A DNA stretch of 21,715 nt from a virus, in IMG/VR virus record IMGVR_UViG_3300010885_024719, positions 1 to 21,715 of that record, one strand, 5' to 3'. Made by a program: the position numbers and the translations under genes. Numbering within the stretch: the first letter of the stretch is position 1; each line of letters starts with the position of its first letter. A model generated the notes under the pieces. It made no database searches, was not told the origin of the DNA, and worked only from the letters and a program-made list of their open reading frames with translations. Shown one piece after another: positions 5,052 through 13,876 of the stretch.

Positions 5052-5741
5052 ATGGCAACAAAAATTTATGAAACAGGAACCATTGAACTTCTAGACGGTA
5101 CAAGTTTGTACATGACACCACTAAAACTAAAATACTACAGAGAGTTTATGGATGTTCTTCTAGATGCAACAAAAGATGGCAATAGGCTAGACATTGATAA
5201 TGGACTTACAGAGTGTGGATTAATCTGTATGAAGCAGTACTATCCAGAAATAAAAACAAAAGAACAGCTTGAGGATGTTGCAGACATTCAAATGATTTAC
5301 GAAATGATGAAATTTGGCGGTGGGCTATCATTAGGAAAAGACTCTAATGAAGCAGAAAAGCCACAACAAGATACAGAGGATAGAGAAAGTTCTTGGCAAA
5401 ACATTGACTTAGCAAAGATTGAGTCAGAGGTTTTCTTGCTAGGAATATACAAGGATTATGAAGAACTAGAATCTTCTTTGTCATTGCAAGAGTTGCTAGC
5501 AATTATAAACATGAGAAGAGACCTAGACTATGAAGAAAAAAAGTTTTTAGCAAGTATCCAAGGAATTGATATTGAAAAGGGTAACAAGAAGAGTGTTGAT
5601 CCCTGGGAAGCAATGAAGGCCAGGGTATTTAGTAAAGGTCAAACCCAAGATCCAGATGACATTACATCATTCCAGGGACCAAAAGCGGCAAAGGCTGGCT
5701 TCGGCGTGGGCATGGGAATTGACTACGAAGATTTGAGATAA
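5052..5741 (+). CDS. Tail assembly chaperone, long form (fused G-T-like)
   Basis: A 229-residue protein. Residues 1-95 are clearly related to the whole of the next gene product: both begin MAT..YET, share LLDGT/LIDGT, PLK, REF and the motif MKQY.PEI, roughly a third identical by eye. Residues ~96-229 are an extra acidic then helical extension (KIESEVFLLGIYKDYEELE, ending in a Gly-rich tail), as expected for the T part of lambda gpGT-type chaperones. These bind the tape measure and tube subunits during tail assembly and are not part of the virion. In most phages the long form is made by a -1 frameshift from the short gene; here it is one continuous frame. No ribosome site precedes the ATG and the -10 box ends 6 bases before it, so it is probably read from a leaderless mRNA at a modest level. 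Confidence 0.8.
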   Translation: MATKIYETGTIELLDGTSLYMTPLKLKYYREFMDVLLDATKDGNRLDIDNGLTECGLICMKQYYPEIKTKEQLEDVADIQMIYEMMKFGGGLSLGKDSNEAEKPQQDTEDRESSWQNIDLAKIESEVFLLGIYKDYEELESSLSLQELLAIINMRRDLDYEEKKFLASIQGIDIEKGNKKSVDPWEAMKARVFSKGQTQDPDDITSFQGPKAAKAGFGVGMGIDYEDLR

Positions 5742-5791: not shown

Positions 5792-6109
5792 ATGGCAACA
5801 ACCGTTTATGAAACAAAAGAGCTACAGCTAATTGATGGAACAACTATTAGTGTTCGACCACTAAAGATTTCACTACTGAGGGAGTTCCTAAAAAAGTTTG
5901 AAACAATTGCTGAGGCTTCAGCAGACAACAATAAGTCAATGGACATTCTAATGGAGTGTGTTCAGATTGCTATGAAGCAGTATCGACCAGAGATTGCTAA
6001 TGATACTGCTGCTATTGAAGAAAACATTGACCTACCGACAGTCTATGCGATTGTTGAGGCAGCATCTGGTATTAGGATGTCGGATATTGCAAATGCCGCT
6101 GGCATTTAA
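5792..6109 (+). CDS. Tail assembly chaperone, short form (G-like)
   Basis: A 105-residue protein homologous over its full length to residues 1-95 of the upstream 229-residue chaperone (shared MAT..YET, DGT, PLK, REF, MKQY.PEI). It corresponds to the lambda gpG-like short chaperone, without the T-like extension. The sequence after it gives no sign of a frameshift product: the -1 frame closes within about 15 codons and no XXXYYYZ slippery heptamer in the right phase is present at the end. It has its own promoter and a strong AAGGAGG, so it is likely made in larger amounts than the long form, matching the usual excess of G over GT. The tape measure gene follows after 25 bases, also as expected for a chaperone. 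Confidence 0.82.
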   Translation: MATTVYETKELQLIDGTTISVRPLKISLLREFLKKFETIAEASADNNKSMDILMECVQIAMKQYRPEIANDTAAIEENIDLPTVYAIVEAASGIRMSDIANAAGI

Positions 6110-6134: not shown

Positions 6135-9100
6135 ATGGCTGAAGATGTAAATGCTAGTATAGGCATAGATATTGATGCATCCCAAGCTATTGCTGCGGTT
6201 CGTCAACTATCCGCAGAGATCTCAGCCTTTCACCAACTTCATTCCAAAAAGGGTGCTGCTGTAGCAAGAAGCCTTGCTGACCAAACCCAAAACCTTACAA
6301 ACCTTGTTAACCGCACTGGTTCTTATCGTGCTAGTATGACAACTGTTGCATCTGCAACTCAGACATTTACTAACGCACTCGAAAAGAACAAGCTCTCTAT
6401 GGGCGAAAACATGCGTTATGCTATGGGGTCAATGAAGCCCTTTTCACGCCTGTTTAAGTCAGAGTGGGAGATGGTTTCCAAGGTTGCTCGCGAAAGAGTC
6501 AAAGACCTACAGACACAGTATATCCGTTTAGGTAGAGATGCCAACGGTGCAGTTCAAGCAATTAAAATTAGGCCTCTTACGCTTGATATGGACAATCTCC
6601 AAACTAAAACAATGCTTGCTGCCCAAAGAATGCAGGTATTGAATAAGCTTGTTGAGAACGGTTCTACCAATCTTCTAAACTGGGGTAAGAACACCCAATG
6701 GGCTGGTCGTCAGCTTATGGTTGGTTTCACTATTCCTCTGACAATGCTTGGTGCAGCTTCTGCCAAAACCTTTATGGATATGGAAAAAGAGATCATCAAG
6801 ATACAGCGTGTTTATGGTGACTTCTCAACTACTGTTGCAGAAACAAAAGAAATGACAGACTCCTTGAGAGAGCTGTCTGTAGAATTTACTAAATGGGGTG
6901 TGTCTGTAACAGATACACTAAATCTTGCTGCCGAGGCAGCAGCAACAGGTTCGATGGGTGCAGACCTAATTAACCAGGTAACAAACGCAACTAAACTAGC
7001 AGTTCTTGGAAATGTTAGTCAGGCAGAAGCACTTGAAACAACTATGTCTGTTACAAATGCATTTGGTATTGCTACAGAAGATCTTGCCAATAAAATTAAC
7101 TTCCTTAACGCAGTTGAGAACCAGTCCGTTACAAGTATTAAAGATTTGACCGTTGCTATTCCAATTGCTGCACCAGTTATTCAGCAACTTGGTGGTAGCG
7201 TAGAAGACCTAGCATTCTTCCTTACCGCCATGAAAGAAGGTGGAATTGATGCTGGTGAAGGTGCTAACGCACTTAAGTCTGGTCTTGCTTCAATTATTAA
7301 TCCAACTGAAAAAGCTTCTGAGATGCTTATGCAGTATGGAATTAACCTTAAAGGAATTGTAGAGTCAAACAAGGGTGACGTAAAGTCAATTGTTGTGGAC
7401 TTTGCATCAGCACTGGATACACTTGATCCACTAAATAGGGCACAGGCTATTGAACAACTATTTGGCAAGTTCCAGTTCTCACGTATTTCTACTCTATTCC
7501 AAAACGTTATTAAGGAAGGTACTCAGGCACAACGTGTTCTTCAACTCTCTCAGGCAAGCACAGAGCAGCTTGCTGTTCTATCACAACGAGAGCTTGCAAA
7601 GGTAGAGGATTCTACAACATTCAAGTTTGAGGCAGCTATGCAGCGATTCCAAGCAGCTTTAGCTCCTGTTGGTGAAGAATTCCTTAAAGCTGTTACTCCA
7701 TTACTTGATTTTGGAACTAGCCTACTTGAGCAATTCAACAAGTGGGATGATGGAGCAAAGACATTTGCTGTAACGTTTGCTGCAATTCTTGGCGGTATTG
7801 GCCCAGTACTTCTAATGTCAATTGGTCTAGTAGCTAATGGTGTGGCAAATATAATTAAGCTATTCCAACTATTTGCTAAGATAATGTTTGGTGCAGGGAA
7901 GAGTACAGGAACTCTTGGTATGCAAACAGACTACCTGTCACAGAACATGACTGAAGCAGCAGCTGCTGCATCATCGCTTGGTCAGACCCACAGCAACCTT
8001 ACACAGATTTACACAAGCGAGGCATCTGCACTTAGAAATCTTGCAGCTGCATTAGAAACCGCAGCGGCATCTCAAAGAAAGATGGTGTCTGCACAACCAG
8101 CTGTTGGCAGAACAAGGGGTCCCAAAAAGTATATGATGGGTACAAAGTCTGTTCCAGGCTACATGTCTGGAACAATGTCTGTTCCTAAATATGCAGAAGG
8201 CGTTGCTATGGTCCCAGGACCAAAGGGTAAGGGTGATGTCGTACCAGCAATGCTTTCTCCAGGAGAAGCAATTATTCCTACTGATATGGCTAAGAAATAT
8301 GCCTCACTAATTGAGGGAATGATTGCAGGAAATATTCCTGGATATGCTAAGGGATATACAAGTGCAGTTTCTAAACTTGGTCGTACAACTAACAAAGCCT
8401 TAAATGAAGGCAACATGGATACAGCAGGTCTTGTTTCAGAACTTCAAAGTGGAGGAAGCAGAATTCATGGACCAATTGTTCAAGGAATTGCAAACAATCT
8501 AGGCTTGTCTCAAAGAGAAATTGATGCCCAACTTTCTGGTAATAGCGAACTAAGGCAATTTGCCGACAGATTTTCTTCAGGCTTAATTGATCAAGTTGCT
8601 GGAATTGGAACTGCAACTATGGGTGATCCAGAATACTATGCTGCAGTAGAAAAAGCAAGAAAAGCTGCAGTTAAGGGCATGTCTCCAGAATTTCAAAAAG
8701 CAACAGAAGACTTGTTTACACAAGCAACAGTTTTTGAAAATAAGTCAGTTCAGAGACAAAGAGGTAGTGGAAAATTTGAAGCCGAAGGCAGGGCAACATT
8801 ACTAAAAGATAAGCCTGGATATAAAGGTATTAACTCTAGGGCAACCGAAAGGCTTTTGCAAGGGACTGTTCCAGCAGACACAGTTTTAGCTCACGGTACT
8901 GCACCAATTTATGCAGATAGCACTCAAAAATTAGCTGGCAATCGTCGAATGAGTGCTACTGCTCAAAAAGCGGTAGACTTAGAATCTAGAAAAAAAGTTG
9001 AAATTTATGGCAGAGGAGCTGACTCAGCTCTAAGAGTACAGGTCCCAGCTGATGCAAGTCAAGATCAAAAAAGAGAGGCTTTGGCTGAGGCTAAGGGGGC

Positions 9101-9998
9101 AAAAGATGCTAAGGCTTATTCAGATGCTAAAAATAAAGTTCTTGATAAACCAGAAAATGATCCATACGTTCAGTCTACCGACAGAAACAGTCCACACCGA
9201 AGAGCTAAAAAAGATGGTATGGATGATGCAAAAGCCTATAGTGATGGGAAAAGAAGAAGAATCAGTCAGGCTGAGGCATATGGTGCTATGTCAAAATCTG
9301 AAAAGACAAAGTATACTAAAGCCGTAAATGCTGGGGATCAAAAGCTTGCTGCCCAACTTCTTGCAGCAAAACGAAGAGAGATTCGTGCAGCAGAAGAATC
9401 TGCTAAAACTGCAGAAAGAGAAGCTGCAGCAGCAAAGCGAAGAGAGTCTGCTCTAAAAGGTGTTACAACTCGTAGAGAAAGGGCAGAAGCCAAAGCAGCA
9501 CTAGCTGCAGAACAAGAAGCTAAGTCAAGAAGTCTTGGAGGCAGAATTGCCAATACAGCACGAGCTGCTGGTGCTAAGGTTAAAGGCTTTGTTGGTGGTG
9601 GCAGAGGTGCTATGGTAGGATCGGTAGGCTCTATGGGCCTTATGATGGGGTCTAGCATGATGCCAGAGGGTGCAGGTGCCGCTGGATCAATTATCGGTGG
9701 AGTTGGAATGGGTGCATCTATGGGGTCAATGCTAGGGCCACAAGGTGCTGCTGCTGGTGCTGCTCTTGGTTTGGTTGTCTCTAGTGCAACGGCTCTTAAA
9801 GAAGCTTTTGATGAAGCACAAAGAAGTGCAGAAGCATTTGCAAAAACAACAGGTGCAAGTTCTCAAGCAATTAAAGCTCTTTCAGAGGCATCTGGTAAAG
9901 TTTCCGCTGGTGAATCTATGGACAAGCGTAGAGAAACTGCTATGCAGTTTGCAAGAACTGAAAAAGCAAATGCTGTTTCAAAAGAATATCTGGCTTAA
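6135..9998 (+). CDS. Tape measure protein, N-terminal part up to an in-frame TAA
   Basis: Sets tail length and is packed inside the tube. This open frame gives 1287 residues. It starts at ATG 6135 behind AGGAG (6121-6125); an ATG at 6131 opens only a three-codon frame. Residues ~178-455 resemble the TP901-type tape measure core (MVGFTIPLTMLGAASAKTFM; AAEAAATGSMGADLINQV; AMKEGGIDAGEGANALKSG). A hydrophobic stretch lies at ~544-586. The motif PAMLSPGEAIIP is at 704-715. Residues ~730-950 look globular and unassigned, ~970-1150 are very rich in Lys, Arg and Ala with two DAKAYSD copies, and ~1158-1220 is a Gly/Met/Ala hydrophobic segment. The frame stops at TAA 9996-9998, but the same frame continues open to 13199, so this is probably one broken or recoded 2354-codon gene. 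Arginine codons shift from mostly CGT to mostly AGA after about 8000. Confidence 0.88.
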   Translation: MAEDVNASIGIDIDASQAIAAVRQLSAEISAFHQLHSKKGAAVARSLADQTQNLTNLVNRTGSYRASMTTVASATQTFTNALEKNKLSMGENMRYAMGSMKPFSRLFKSEWEMVSKVARERVKDLQTQYIRLGRDANGAVQAIKIRPLTLDMDNLQTKTMLAAQRMQVLNKLVENGSTNLLNWGKNTQWAGRQLMVGFTIPLTMLGAASAKTFMDMEKEIIKIQRVYGDFSTTVAETKEMTDSLRELSVEFTKWGVSVTDTLNLAAEAAATGSMGADLINQVTNATKLAVLGNVSQAEALETTMSVTNAFGIATEDLANKINFLNAVENQSVTSIKDLTVAIPIAAPVIQQLGGSVEDLAFFLTAMKEGGIDAGEGANALKSGLASIINPTEKASEMLMQYGINLKGIVESNKGDVKSIVVDFASALDTLDPLNRAQAIEQLFGKFQFSRISTLFQNVIKEGTQAQRVLQLSQASTEQLAVLSQRELAKVEDSTTFKFEAAMQRFQAALAPVGEEFLKAVTPLLDFGTSLLEQFNKWDDGAKTFAVTFAAILGGIGPVLLMSIGLVANGVANIIKLFQLFAKIMFGAGKSTGTLGMQTDYLSQNMTEAAAAASSLGQTHSNLTQIYTSEASALRNLAAALETAAASQRKMVSAQPAVGRTRGPKKYMMGTKSVPGYMSGTMSVPKYAEGVAMVPGPKGKGDVVPAMLSPGEAIIPTDMAKKYASLIEGMIAGNIPGYAKGYTSAVSKLGRTTNKALNEGNMDTAGLVSELQSGGSRIHGPIVQGIANNLGLSQREIDAQLSGNSELRQFADRFSSGLIDQVAGIGTATMGDPEYYAAVEKARKAAVKGMSPEFQKATEDLFTQATVFENKSVQRQRGSGKFEAEGRATLLKDKPGYKGINSRATERLLQGTVPADTVLAHGTAPIYADSTQKLAGNRRMSATAQKAVDLESRKKVEIYGRGADSALRVQVPADASQDQKREALAEAKGAKDAKAYSDAKNKVLDKPENDPYVQSTDRNSPHRRAKKDGMDDAKAYSDGKRRRISQAEAYGAMSKSEKTKYTKAVNAGDQKLAAQLLAAKRREIRAAEESAKTAEREAAAAKRRESALKGVTTRRERAEAKAALAAEQEAKSRSLGGRIANTARAAGAKVKGFVGGGRGAMVGSVGSMGLMMGSSMMPEGAGAAGSIIGGVGMGASMGSMLGPQGAAAGAALGLVVSSATALKEAFDEAQRSAEAFAKTTGASSQAIKALSEASGKVSAGESMDKRRETAMQFARTEKANAVSKEYLA
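9996..9998 (+). other. Single in-frame TAA inside the tape measure reading frame
   Basis: Codon 1288 of the tape measure frame is TAA. Both sides are in the same phase (6135 and 10086 differ by a multiple of 3), so no insertion or deletion is involved. The 29 codons between it and ATG 10086 are all sense and read as tape-measure-like helix (EAGQASVEALGKSLSSGGSK). One base change would give CAA, GAA or AAA. No ribosome site and no in-frame ATG, GTG or TTG lies between 9999 and 10085. Confidence 0.93.
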
Positions 9999-10085
9999 GA
10001 AGCTGGACAAGCATCCGTCGAAGCACTTGGAAAGAGCCTTTCTTCTGGCGGCTCTAAGGCAGCTATATCAAACATTGTTTCTCAA

Positions 10086-13000
10086 ATGACCACCGCTATT
10101 GCGTCTGGTGCAGTTAGTGCTACAGATGCAAGGGCAATTGTTGAAGATATCGGCACACAGCTTGGGGACACATCATTTGCATTAAGGGCAAATGCACAAA
10201 TCGAATCTATGATTGGCATAAATGGAGAAGACCTAGCAAAAGATCCAATTGGCGTAAGGCTAAAGATTCTTGGGGATACGCAAAGCCAATTGGCGGTCCT
10301 GTCTGATGGTGTAGAAGGTTTTGGAAAAGACATGGGGCAAATCTTTACACAAAACCTTATGAATTTTGATACACCGCTTGCTACATTGAACAGTCTTGGA
10401 AACTTGGTCTCACCAGCCGCTTTGATTACAAATTCAATTATTGGTGGCGTACAGCAAATGCAAGAGCTTGGAACACAAACAGCTGCGTTTGCTGCCAATG
10501 TAACTATTGCTGCTCAGCAAGGTCAAGAAATGCTAGATTCCCTGCAGATTGAGTATGAACAAAGAATTGGTATCGCAACAGCGGCAGGAGATCTTGCAGA
10601 AGCTACTAGACTACAAGGAGAGTATGAGCTTGGGAAACAGAAAATTCTTGCACAAAATGCTGAGACATTAAAGTCTGCAAGTACAGCATACTCAGAAATG
10701 GAATCAAATGCTCAGACTGGTGTTATAGGTTCAATTGATCAACAAATTAAAGACCTATATGCAGAAGGTCCATTGGCAGCACTAGCACAGCAAAGCATAT
10801 CACAAATTGGATCGCTTACACAAAATGGTGGTCAAACCGAGTTTGTACTTAAGACAACATTGAGCAGTGGTGACGTTGACCCAGAAACAATGAACTCAGT
10901 GCTAGCTCTTCTTGGAAAAGAACAGATAGACGTTGCAGCAAATATTATTACGCAATTTGGTGGAGCAGAAGCAGATAGAATTTTTCAACTTTCTAAGCTT
11001 GTCGATAACCCAGAAATTGCAACAAGCCTAGTCGTTGGAATGCAGGGTATGACCCCAGAAGAAGCTTCAAAAACATTGAATACATTTGAAGAAATAGGAA
11101 AACTTTCTGGTCAAAATGGAATTAATGGCATAGTGAATATTGCCGTTAATGATAATGGAGAGCTAGATCTTACCAAGCTAAACGAAATAACAAATCAGAT
11201 TAAAGGACTTGAGGCAGAGTTTAATGCTGGTCCAGTATCTGCAAAAAGAGTGAGGGAATATATTTTCCAAACTACTGGACTTACTATGACCCAAGATGCA
11301 GAAAATTATTACAACAGTCTTCCGCCAGATGCTCAAAGACTTTACACGTCAACATATTTGACGGTTTCAAAAAGCATTAATGCAAACTCACCAGAAGGTA
11401 TGAAACAGCTTAGAGATTGGGCAGGAGGAGATATACGGAAATACATGAAGTCTGGTCCAGGCTCAACAAAAAGAATTGACTATAACGCTCTAGGTTCAGC
11501 ATATGCAGCAGATCAGGCCCGACAGCAAGCTCAGGCTCAGCAACAGGCCGCTGCAAATGTATCAGGCAACAATGACGATGGAGGTGGAGGTGGTGGAGGA
11601 GGATCTTCTGCTCCTCAAAAAACAGCTCAAGAAATTGAACTGGAAAATATGAATGATCAACTTTCCAAACATCAAAAAGCACTTACTATTTTGTCATTCC
11701 AAGAAGATGAAATTAACAAGAAATACGAAAAACGTAAAGAGGCACTTAGAGAGATTGCTGAGATTAATGCACAGATTTCAGAAGAGCAAAGAGGACAGCT
11801 TGATCTTGCTGGTGCCCTAGCATCTGGTGATATTGCTGCTGCTGCTCGTGCCGCCCAAGACATGAGAAGCAAGGCTGCTGACAACGCCGTTAAGGGCCAG
11901 GAAAAAGCACTTGAAGAAGCACAAAAAAGAGAGCTTGCTGCTGTAACATTTGACGGACAAACAAGGGCACAAAGAGAAGCACAGATAAAAGACTTTGAGA
12001 AAAAAATTGCAGACCTTGAATACAGAATGCCGAAGAAAGAAGAGTCAAGCAGTGGCGGCGGAGGCGGCGGAGGCGGCGGAGGCGGCGTAACAACCCCACC
12101 ACCTGCTACGCCTCCTCCAGTTACTAAGCCAACTACTGGTCCATACAGTATTACAGGAGCACCTGGTAAACCAATTGAAGTAAAAAAAGGTTGGCCACAG
12201 ACTGAGGGTTGGTGGCAAAGTCTTATGGCTATGGGAAGCCTTGTCGCAGATGGATTGAGTGTAATTGCTAATTGGTGGAATACTGAAGGTCCAGGAAAAT
12301 ACATTAATGAGTGGATGGCAGCCTTTGGAGAATGGTGGGATACATGGGTTGCACAACCAGTAAAAGGTTTTATAGATAGCATTGCAAACTGGTGGAATGA
12401 AGGTCCAGGAGCATTCTTCAATACAGTGTTTACAACTATTGGTACTTTGTGGGACACCTATATTTCTAAACCAATTCAGGGATTCTTTGACTGGTTCTTT
12501 GGACCATCAAGTGTTGAACAAAAAAAGAAAGACATTGCTAATTTTATTGGAAGCATTGGAAGTTTCTTTAAAGGGGTATTTGACAATATTGGAAACTGGA
12601 TTGGAGAAATTCCAAAATTCTTCCAAGATGCAGTAAACAATGCAATATCGTTCTTGAGGCAAATTGGAGATTGGTTTGGTGGTTTACCTGGAATAATTGG
12701 TAATGCAATTGGTGGACTCGCAAACAATATTGGAAACGGTATAAAAGGAATTCTTAACGGTCTATTCGATATGATGCGTGGAGTAAACATTGCAGGATGG
12801 AAGCCATTTGGGGGTCTTCCAAGACTTGCAACTGGTGGTCCAATTACTGGCCCTGGCGGACCAACATCAGACTCTATCCCTGCCATGCTTTCAAGCGGAG
12901 AATATGTGGTTCGTGCATCATCTGTTTCTAAAGTTGGTCTTCCATTTCTGGAAGCTATTAATAACGGAGAGATGCCAGATCTCAAGGGTACAAAAATTAG

Positions 13001-13199
13001 TATTCCAGGAATTAAATATAATGGAAAGACTCCAGGACTAAGTAAGGGAGAATCTGCACAAGAATCCAGCGGATCAGTGTATAATTATAGTATAGTTGTT
13101 AACGCAGAAACAAATGCTAATCCAGACCAGATTGCAAGTGCGGTTATGACAAAGATTAAGCAAGTAGAAGGACAACGAGTTAGAGGTGTGATTAGATAA
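10086..13199 (+). CDS. Tape measure protein, C-terminal part after the in-frame TAA
   Basis: Continuation of the tape measure frame; 1037 residues if counted from the ATG at 10086. That ATG has no Shine-Dalgarno sequence, so independent translation is doubtful. Order of segments: helical part (1-~490) with a Gln/Ala-rich end; Gly8 linker (499-506); a charged coiled-coil-like block (~510-650); Gly11 linker (657-667); a Pro/Thr linker; Trp-rich repeats (~728-805); an amphipathic Gly/Ile/Asn-rich stretch; then the motif PAMLSSGEYVV at ~932, a common tape measure C-terminal element that also occurs once in the first part. The C-terminus is a small beta-type unit (SVYNYSIVVNAETNANPDQI). The stop overlaps the next start (TAATG). 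If joined to the first part, about 2350 residues would give a tail near 350 nm by the usual ~0.15 nm per residue. Confidence 0.85.
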   Translation: MTTAIASGAVSATDARAIVEDIGTQLGDTSFALRANAQIESMIGINGEDLAKDPIGVRLKILGDTQSQLAVLSDGVEGFGKDMGQIFTQNLMNFDTPLATLNSLGNLVSPAALITNSIIGGVQQMQELGTQTAAFAANVTIAAQQGQEMLDSLQIEYEQRIGIATAAGDLAEATRLQGEYELGKQKILAQNAETLKSASTAYSEMESNAQTGVIGSIDQQIKDLYAEGPLAALAQQSISQIGSLTQNGGQTEFVLKTTLSSGDVDPETMNSVLALLGKEQIDVAANIITQFGGAEADRIFQLSKLVDNPEIATSLVVGMQGMTPEEASKTLNTFEEIGKLSGQNGINGIVNIAVNDNGELDLTKLNEITNQIKGLEAEFNAGPVSAKRVREYIFQTTGLTMTQDAENYYNSLPPDAQRLYTSTYLTVSKSINANSPEGMKQLRDWAGGDIRKYMKSGPGSTKRIDYNALGSAYAADQARQQAQAQQQAAANVSGNNDDGGGGGGGGSSAPQKTAQEIELENMNDQLSKHQKALTILSFQEDEINKKYEKRKEALREIAEINAQISEEQRGQLDLAGALASGDIAAAARAAQDMRSKAADNAVKGQEKALEEAQKRELAAVTFDGQTRAQREAQIKDFEKKIADLEYRMPKKEESSSGGGGGGGGGGGVTTPPPATPPPVTKPTTGPYSITGAPGKPIEVKKGWPQTEGWWQSLMAMGSLVADGLSVIANWWNTEGPGKYINEWMAAFGEWWDTWVAQPVKGFIDSIANWWNEGPGAFFNTVFTTIGTLWDTYISKPIQGFFDWFFGPSSVEQKKKDIANFIGSIGSFFKGVFDNIGNWIGEIPKFFQDAVNNAISFLRQIGDWFGGLPGIIGNAIGGLANNIGNGIKGILNGLFDMMRGVNIAGWKPFGGLPRLATGGPITGPGGPTSDSIPAMLSSGEYVVRASSVSKVGLPFLEAINNGEMPDLKGTKISIPGIKYNGKTPGLSKGESAQESSGSVYNYSIVVNAETNANPDQIASAVMTKIKQVEGQRVRGVIR
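11580..11603 (+). repeat. Gly8 linker in the tape measure frame
   Basis: Eight consecutive glycine codons of mixed GGA/GGT type separate the Gln-rich helical part from the charged coiled-coil block. Unlike the second Gly tract it is not a regular DNA repeat. Confidence 0.85.
12054..12086 (+). repeat. GGCGGCGGA tandem repeat coding for Gly11
   Basis: The 9-base unit GGCGGCGGA is repeated three times and followed by GGCGGC, giving eleven glycines. It is a GC island in AT-rich DNA, directly before a Pro/Thr linker. Units of 9 bases keep the frame, so copy number could change by replication slippage without breaking the gene. Confidence 0.92.
12267..12500 (+). repeat. Two tandem ~39-residue Trp-rich repeats in the tape measure protein
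   Basis: Unit 1 starts ANWWNTEGPG at 12267 and unit 2 starts ANWWNEGPGA at 12384. Both continue with a W-D-T element and a QPVKGF / KPIQGF element. A partial relative (GWWQSL) precedes them. Such Trp-containing repeats are common in tape measure proteins and are thought to match the periodicity of the tail tube. Confidence 0.8.
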
Positions 13200-13876
13200 T
13201 GGCTGTTACTCAACAAGAAATTAATTATGTTGCTGGTCGTAAAAGGTATACAAGACCGCAGGGTATTGCTTTTGCTGAGGCGTACAATCAATCAACTTCA
13301 GGATTGATACCAGCTGGATTTGAAATAAACTCTGCACAAACAGACAACCTAGAAACTTTCCTAATTTTGTCAGATCACAATAGGGGGGCCATTGACATCT
13401 CTCCAAAGCGTATTGAAACCAGAGAGCGAATGGTCAATGGAAGAATGCGTTCGTATCACATTGATGACAAAAAGATGATTAGACTTTCTTGGGACAACCT
13501 ACCATCAAGGTCATATGCTACATCGCCAGAATTTGCAATCGCTGACTCTTTTAGTGGACAAACACAAACAGCATTTACTGGAAAATCTTCATTCTATAAA
13601 GATAGAGCAGAATACACTGTAGACGGTGGAGCAGGTGGGGCAGACATTAAAGAATGGTATGACCAGCATGTTGGTTCATTTTATGTTCTACTAGCATATG
13701 ATAACTCTGCAAGTCTTCAAAACACTGCTGGACCAAACGGTAGCAAGTATGCTAAACTTGGTCAGTATACGGAAGCAATAGAAATGTTTATTTCTGATTT
13801 TTCATTTAATGTAAACAAAAGAGGTGCTACTACTCATGACTTGTGGTCTGTATCTATAAGCTTGGAAGAGGCATAG
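13199..13876 (+). CDS. Distal tail protein-like / minor tail protein
   Basis: A 225-residue protein directly after the tape measure, the usual place of the distal tail (Dit) protein that closes the tube and anchors the tip. It is mainly beta in character. Recognisable segments are 'ETFLILSDHNRGAIDISPKR', 'RMVNGRMRSYHIDDKKMIRL' and a C-terminal 'AIEMFISDFSFNVNKRG'. Starts at ATG in a TAATG overlap with the tape measure stop and ends one base before the next ATG, so expression is coupled to both. The Dit call rests on position and beta content; it could instead be another small tip protein. Confidence 0.6.
   Translation: MAVTQQEINYVAGRKRYTRPQGIAFAEAYNQSTSGLIPAGFEINSAQTDNLETFLILSDHNRGAIDISPKRIETRERMVNGRMRSYHIDDKKMIRLSWDNLPSRSYATSPEFAIADSFSGQTQTAFTGKSSFYKDRAEYTVDGGAGGADIKEWYDQHVGSFYVLLAYDNSASLQNTAGPNGSKYAKLGQYTEAIEMFISDFSFNVNKRGATTHDLWSVSISLEEA

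What the first reader, a model, noticed from the sequence alone, without database searches (positions are those of the whole stretch)
9996..9998. One TAA splits an otherwise open 2354-codon tape measure frame
Both flanks are in the same phase and the 29 codons after the TAA are all sense and tape-measure-like. No ribosome site or start codon serves the second part before an unsupported ATG at 10086. Explanations: a nonsense mutation in a defective genome, an assembly or read error of one base, stop readthrough that makes two tape lengths, or two separate proteins. A whole-genome TAA reassignment is unlikely because at least ten genes here end in TAA.
Basis: partly seen in the sequence, partly recalled or inferred. 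Interest (0 to 1): 0.75.

Follow-up and report, generated by a model that had tools for sequence, protein, structure and literature searches.

The report
Private stop in a tape-measure gene
A phage gene for the protein that sets tail length is interrupted by one stop codon seen in none of its relatives from 54 aligned contigs, so it is most likely a one-letter sequencing error or a private disabling mutation, which is ordinary.

Summary
TAA at 9996-9998 is the only in-frame stop between ATG 6135 and TAA 13197-13199, in a frame of 2354 codons counting the TAA. The explanation is ordinary. The closest relative found (IMG/VR 3300028025_000656; 94% DNA identity over 11.9 kb) has the same gene as one open frame. 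It carries TCA (Ser) at the homologous codon, one base away from TAA (window position 9997). I aligned 59 related loci (54 distinct contigs) across the site. All have a sense codon there: Ser 29, Thr 17, Gly 10, Gln 2, Asp 1. Of 69 related tape measure genes whose end is visible, none shows a stop followed by a long in-frame continuation. The one other broken copy I traced is private too: L054 lacks 149 bp that an otherwise 99.97-99.99% identical contig has. There is no ribosome site, promoter, terminator, downstream RNA structure or suppressor tRNA at or near the site. No other gene in the window is visibly broken. Two separate proteins, programmed readthrough and TAA reassignment are therefore rejected or unsupported. 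What remains is a consensus base error or a private nonsense mutation. Only reads can separate the two. The phage is an uncultured distant relative of Streptomyces phages of Stanwilliamsviridae.

The parts
6135..9998 (+). First part of the tape measure protein gene, 1287 aa, ending at the TAA in question
   Evidence: Pfam PhageMin_Tail 5.9e-25; PHROG tape measure families, best 6.4e-99; start has AAGGAG upstream
9996..9998 (+). In-frame TAA at codon 1288; sense codon (Ser/Thr/Gly, rarely Gln or Asp) in all 59 aligned related loci; TCA in the 94% relative
9999..13199 (+). Remainder of the same tape measure gene, 1066 sense codons then TAA; no start or ribosome site of its own
   Evidence: Same frame; the whole gene is 92.9% identical in protein to L002 through codon 1921; C-terminal tape measure PHROG matches; dN/dS 0.05-0.23 downstream of the stop
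13199..13876 (+). Next tail gene (225 aa), overlapping the stop of the full frame by one base; its homologue follows the single-ORF tape measure in relatives
   Evidence: PHROG 1194

Best explanation
The gene at 6135-13199 is one ordinary tape measure gene of an uncultured tailed phage. The TAA at codon 1288 is a private single-base change at position 9997: the nearest relative has C there, the window has A. It is either a wrong base in the metagenome consensus or a recent nonsense mutation in the sampled genome. If real, it would truncate the protein to 1287 residues, removing the C-terminal 45%, and most likely give a defective phage. That no relative shares the stop and that the gene is a single frame in relatives is shown; error versus real mutation is not resolved. 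Error is slightly favoured by inference, because a lethal change should not be the majority sequence in a growing phage.
For: One open frame through the site in L002, 94.3% DNA identity over 11.9 kb, codon TCA there. Sense codon in 59 of 59 aligned loci from 54 contigs, Ser/Thr/Gly in 56. Of 69 related genes with a visible end, none has an in-frame continuation longer than 56 codons after its first stop. The part after the stop is still constrained: dN/dS 0.05 for codons 1289-1385, 0.11 for the well-aligned parts. All nine other genes shared with L002 are uninterrupted. A base-error or mutation rate of 1e-4 per base would predict 0.09 nonsense changes in a window of this size, so one such case is expected in a scan of many windows. 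Another break in this gene in IMG/VR is private as well (L054).
Against: No reads were available. Only one close relative (94%) spans the site; the others are about 26-43% identical there. The dN/dS values compare two sequences and mix the histories of both.
Confidence: 0.95

Rival explanations
1. Sub-case A of the best explanation: consensus base error of the metagenome assembly at 9997.
For: All other shared genes are intact; the stop-making change is a single base; the truncated product would probably be non-functional, and no decay is seen around it.
Against: No reads to check; the site is not in a homopolymer, and C>A differences between window and L002 are not in excess (25, against 18 to 30 for the other transversion types).
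Confidence: 0.52
2. Sub-case B of the best explanation: a real private nonsense mutation in a defective or minority genome.
For: TAA is one step from the relative's codon; about 4% of all single substitutions in this gene make a stop.
Against: No other gene is broken; a lethal mutation should not be the majority sequence unless coverage was low (inference).
Confidence: 0.43
3. Programmed stop readthrough that gives two tape measure lengths.
For: The frame stays open and constrained after the stop.
Against: TAA is absent from all 59 aligned relatives. Downstream RNA is no more structured than shuffles (z 0.85). No tRNA in the window or in 38 related loci. The context UAA GAA GCU is not a readthrough signal known to me (own knowledge).
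Confidence: 0.02
4. Two separate proteins from a split gene.
For: The ORF from ATG 10086 is 1037 aa long.
Against: No Shine-Dalgarno motif before 10086, no promoter or terminator pattern. Relatives have one gene. The Met at 10086 lies inside an aligned stretch and is often Leu in relatives.
Confidence: 0.02
5. TAA reassigned to an amino acid in this phage.
For: None beyond the open frame.
Against: About 11 genes end in TAA, including this one at 13197-13199, and those shared with L002 have equal or nearly equal lengths there. No other in-frame TAA lies inside any of the genes examined.
Confidence: 0.01

Closest known systems
Tape measure gene of IMG/VR contig 3300028025_000656 (L002)
   Same: 94% DNA identity over 11.9 kb, same gene order, same frame on both sides of the site
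   Different: TCA (Ser) instead of TAA; one open frame of 1920 codons to the contig end
Tape measure proteins of Streptomyces phages of Stanwilliamsviridae (e.g. Enygma gene 61)
   Same: 31% identity over residues 3-576; similar order from the major capsid protein to the tail genes
   Different: Single uninterrupted 6294-nt gene; very distant in sequence, and the second half of the window's gene has no match in the phage records

Membership tests
Phage tape measure protein (PhageMin_Tail, PF10145; PHROG 10030) | N-terminal PhageMin_Tail domain above Pfam cutoff | tested here: met
   88.8 bits against a cutoff of 33.2; PHROG 10030 6.4e-99
Phage tape measure protein (PhageMin_Tail, PF10145; PHROG 10030) | Long single gene after the tail chaperone position and before the distal tail genes | tested here: met
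   Gene order as in Enygma and in related contigs; single frame in relatives, interrupted in the window
Phage tape measure protein (PhageMin_Tail, PF10145; PHROG 10030) | Sets tail length | not testable with these tools
   Needs virion microscopy
Programmed stop-codon readthrough | Stop codon conserved among relatives | tested here: not met
   0 of 59 aligned loci
Programmed stop-codon readthrough | Downstream stimulating RNA structure | tested here: not met
   z 0.85 for the 100 nt downstream
Alternative genetic code (TAA recoded) | Recurrent in-frame TAA in genes and avoidance of TAA as terminator | tested here: not met
   One in-frame TAA among the genes examined; about 11 genes end in TAA
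Alternative genetic code (TAA recoded) | Ochre suppressor tRNA | tested here: inconclusive
   None in the window or in 38 related loci, but the genome is incomplete

The most novel reading that the evidence does not exclude
This particular phage lineage really carries the stop and makes both a short and a readthrough tape measure, giving particles with two tail lengths.
Probability: 0.02. Interest if true: 0.7.

Novelty: not a real feature. Interest (0 to 1): 0.08.

Why it matters
It matters little beyond annotation: the two ORFs should be recorded as one interrupted tape measure gene rather than two proteins. The comparison also shows that breaks of this long gene in metagenome contigs are rare and, where traced, private to single contigs.

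Tried and rejected
Further close relatives: a DNA pattern across the site with the middle base of the codon left free found only L002's contig. Scans with the second half and with the region around the site found L002 alone, plus L005, which shares only a short glycine-rich stretch and no other gene and was rejected. The genome collection had no relative. The phage records have relatives of the first half only. Readthrough structure, reinitiation, a promoter, a terminator and suppressor tRNAs were looked for and not found. An excess of C-to-A differences that would point to damage-type errors was not seen. Two paper searches turned up no described tape measure readthrough; the one promising hit (PMC3091744) concerns the tail chaperone frameshift.

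Full report
Observation. The window is a 21,715-base virus record. The frame from ATG 6135 is open to TAA 9996-9998 (1287 aa) and then for 1066 more sense codons to TAA 13197-13199. The other two forward frames over the second part hold 57 and 79 stops, so the continuation is real coding sequence. No start codon lies in frame before ATG 10086. There is no Shine-Dalgarno motif upstream of it, whereas ATG 6135 has AAGGAG.

Identity. The first part matches PhageMin_Tail (5.9e-25) and many PHROG tape measure families. The second part matches C-terminal pieces of tape measure families, with one PHROG match labelled endolysin. The best annotated relatives of the first part are tape measure proteins of Streptomyces phages of Stanwilliamsviridae at about 31% identity. 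In Enygma, gene order from the major capsid protein through the tail chaperone to the tape measure is like that of the window, and the tape measure is a single 6294-nt gene.

Relatives across the site. A scan of IMG/VR with the residues after the stop gave one close relative, contig 3300028025_000656. It is 94.3% identical to the window over 11.9 kb. It has the same genes at the same lengths, apart from 220 instead of 224 aa in one, and one open tape measure frame to its contig end. At the homologous codon it has TCA, with the same codons on both sides of it. A wider scan with the conserved N-terminus gave 80 more loci, and one with the capsid protein gave 80 hits, several on the same contigs. 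Fifty-nine loci from 54 contigs, L002 included, could be aligned across the site. All have a sense codon: Ser 29, Thr 17, Gly 10, Gln 2, Asp 1. The position is thus a mostly small residue inside a continuous protein.

Single gene or two. Among loci, 69 show the end of the tape measure frame. In none does the frame stay open for more than 56 codons after its first stop, against 1066 in the window. In nearly all, the stop is next to the homologue of the 13199-13876 gene. Two of the 69 end early, L054 and L064. L054 lacks 149 bp, not a multiple of three, that L052 has; the two are otherwise 99.97-99.99% identical. The cause in L064 was not worked out. Breaks in this gene in metagenome contigs are therefore rare and, where traced, private.

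Selection. Between window and L002, dN/dS is 0.19 before the stop and 0.05 to 0.23 after it, depending on the stretch. There is no sign that the second part has drifted, so the stop is recent or not real. The eight other shared genes compared have dN/dS between 0 and 0.27. These are pairwise values and cannot assign changes to one branch.

Mechanisms for a functional stop. The 100 nt downstream fold no better than shuffles (z 0.85). There is no promoter or terminator pattern around the site. No tRNA gene was found in the window or in 38 related loci. About 11 genes end in TAA and no other in-frame TAA was seen inside the genes examined. Readthrough, reassignment and two separate genes have no support.

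Chance. About 4% of single substitutions in the window's genes create a stop. A base-error or mutation rate of 1e-4 (assumed for illustration) predicts 0.09 nonsense changes per window of this size. One such change is ordinary in a scan of many windows.

Verdict. A private C-to-A difference at 9997 in an otherwise normal tape measure gene: a consensus error (slightly favoured) or a private nonsense mutation. Reads are needed to tell them apart.

Noticed in passing
5052-5741 and 5792-6109: The two genes before the tape measure are paralogues: residues 1-101 of the first align with the second at 36% identity (2e-20), both matching PHROG 10504; the first has an added C-terminal domain (PHROG 10474). 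They sit where a tail assembly chaperone lies in Enygma, suggesting a duplicated chaperone domain, possibly in place of the usual frameshift product.
   Followed up: partly
about 10290-10455: A patch of the tape measure gene (codons about 1386-1440) is far more divergent from L002 than its surroundings, with indels, suggesting local recombination.
   Followed up: no
L054 8979/8980: Contig 3300008113_001626 lacks 149 bp inside its tape measure gene compared with contig 3300032093_000730, which is otherwise 99.97-99.99% identical.
   Followed up: yes
L064 near 11656: A second related contig has its tape measure frame broken at about codon 840, with homology resuming in another frame further on; cause not worked out.
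   Followed up: no
window and loci L007-L086: A large family of uncultured phages distantly related to Stanwilliamsviridae, with tape measure frames from about 1700 to 3660 residues and a conserved N-terminus; the wide length range would suit a study of tail length.
   Followed up: no
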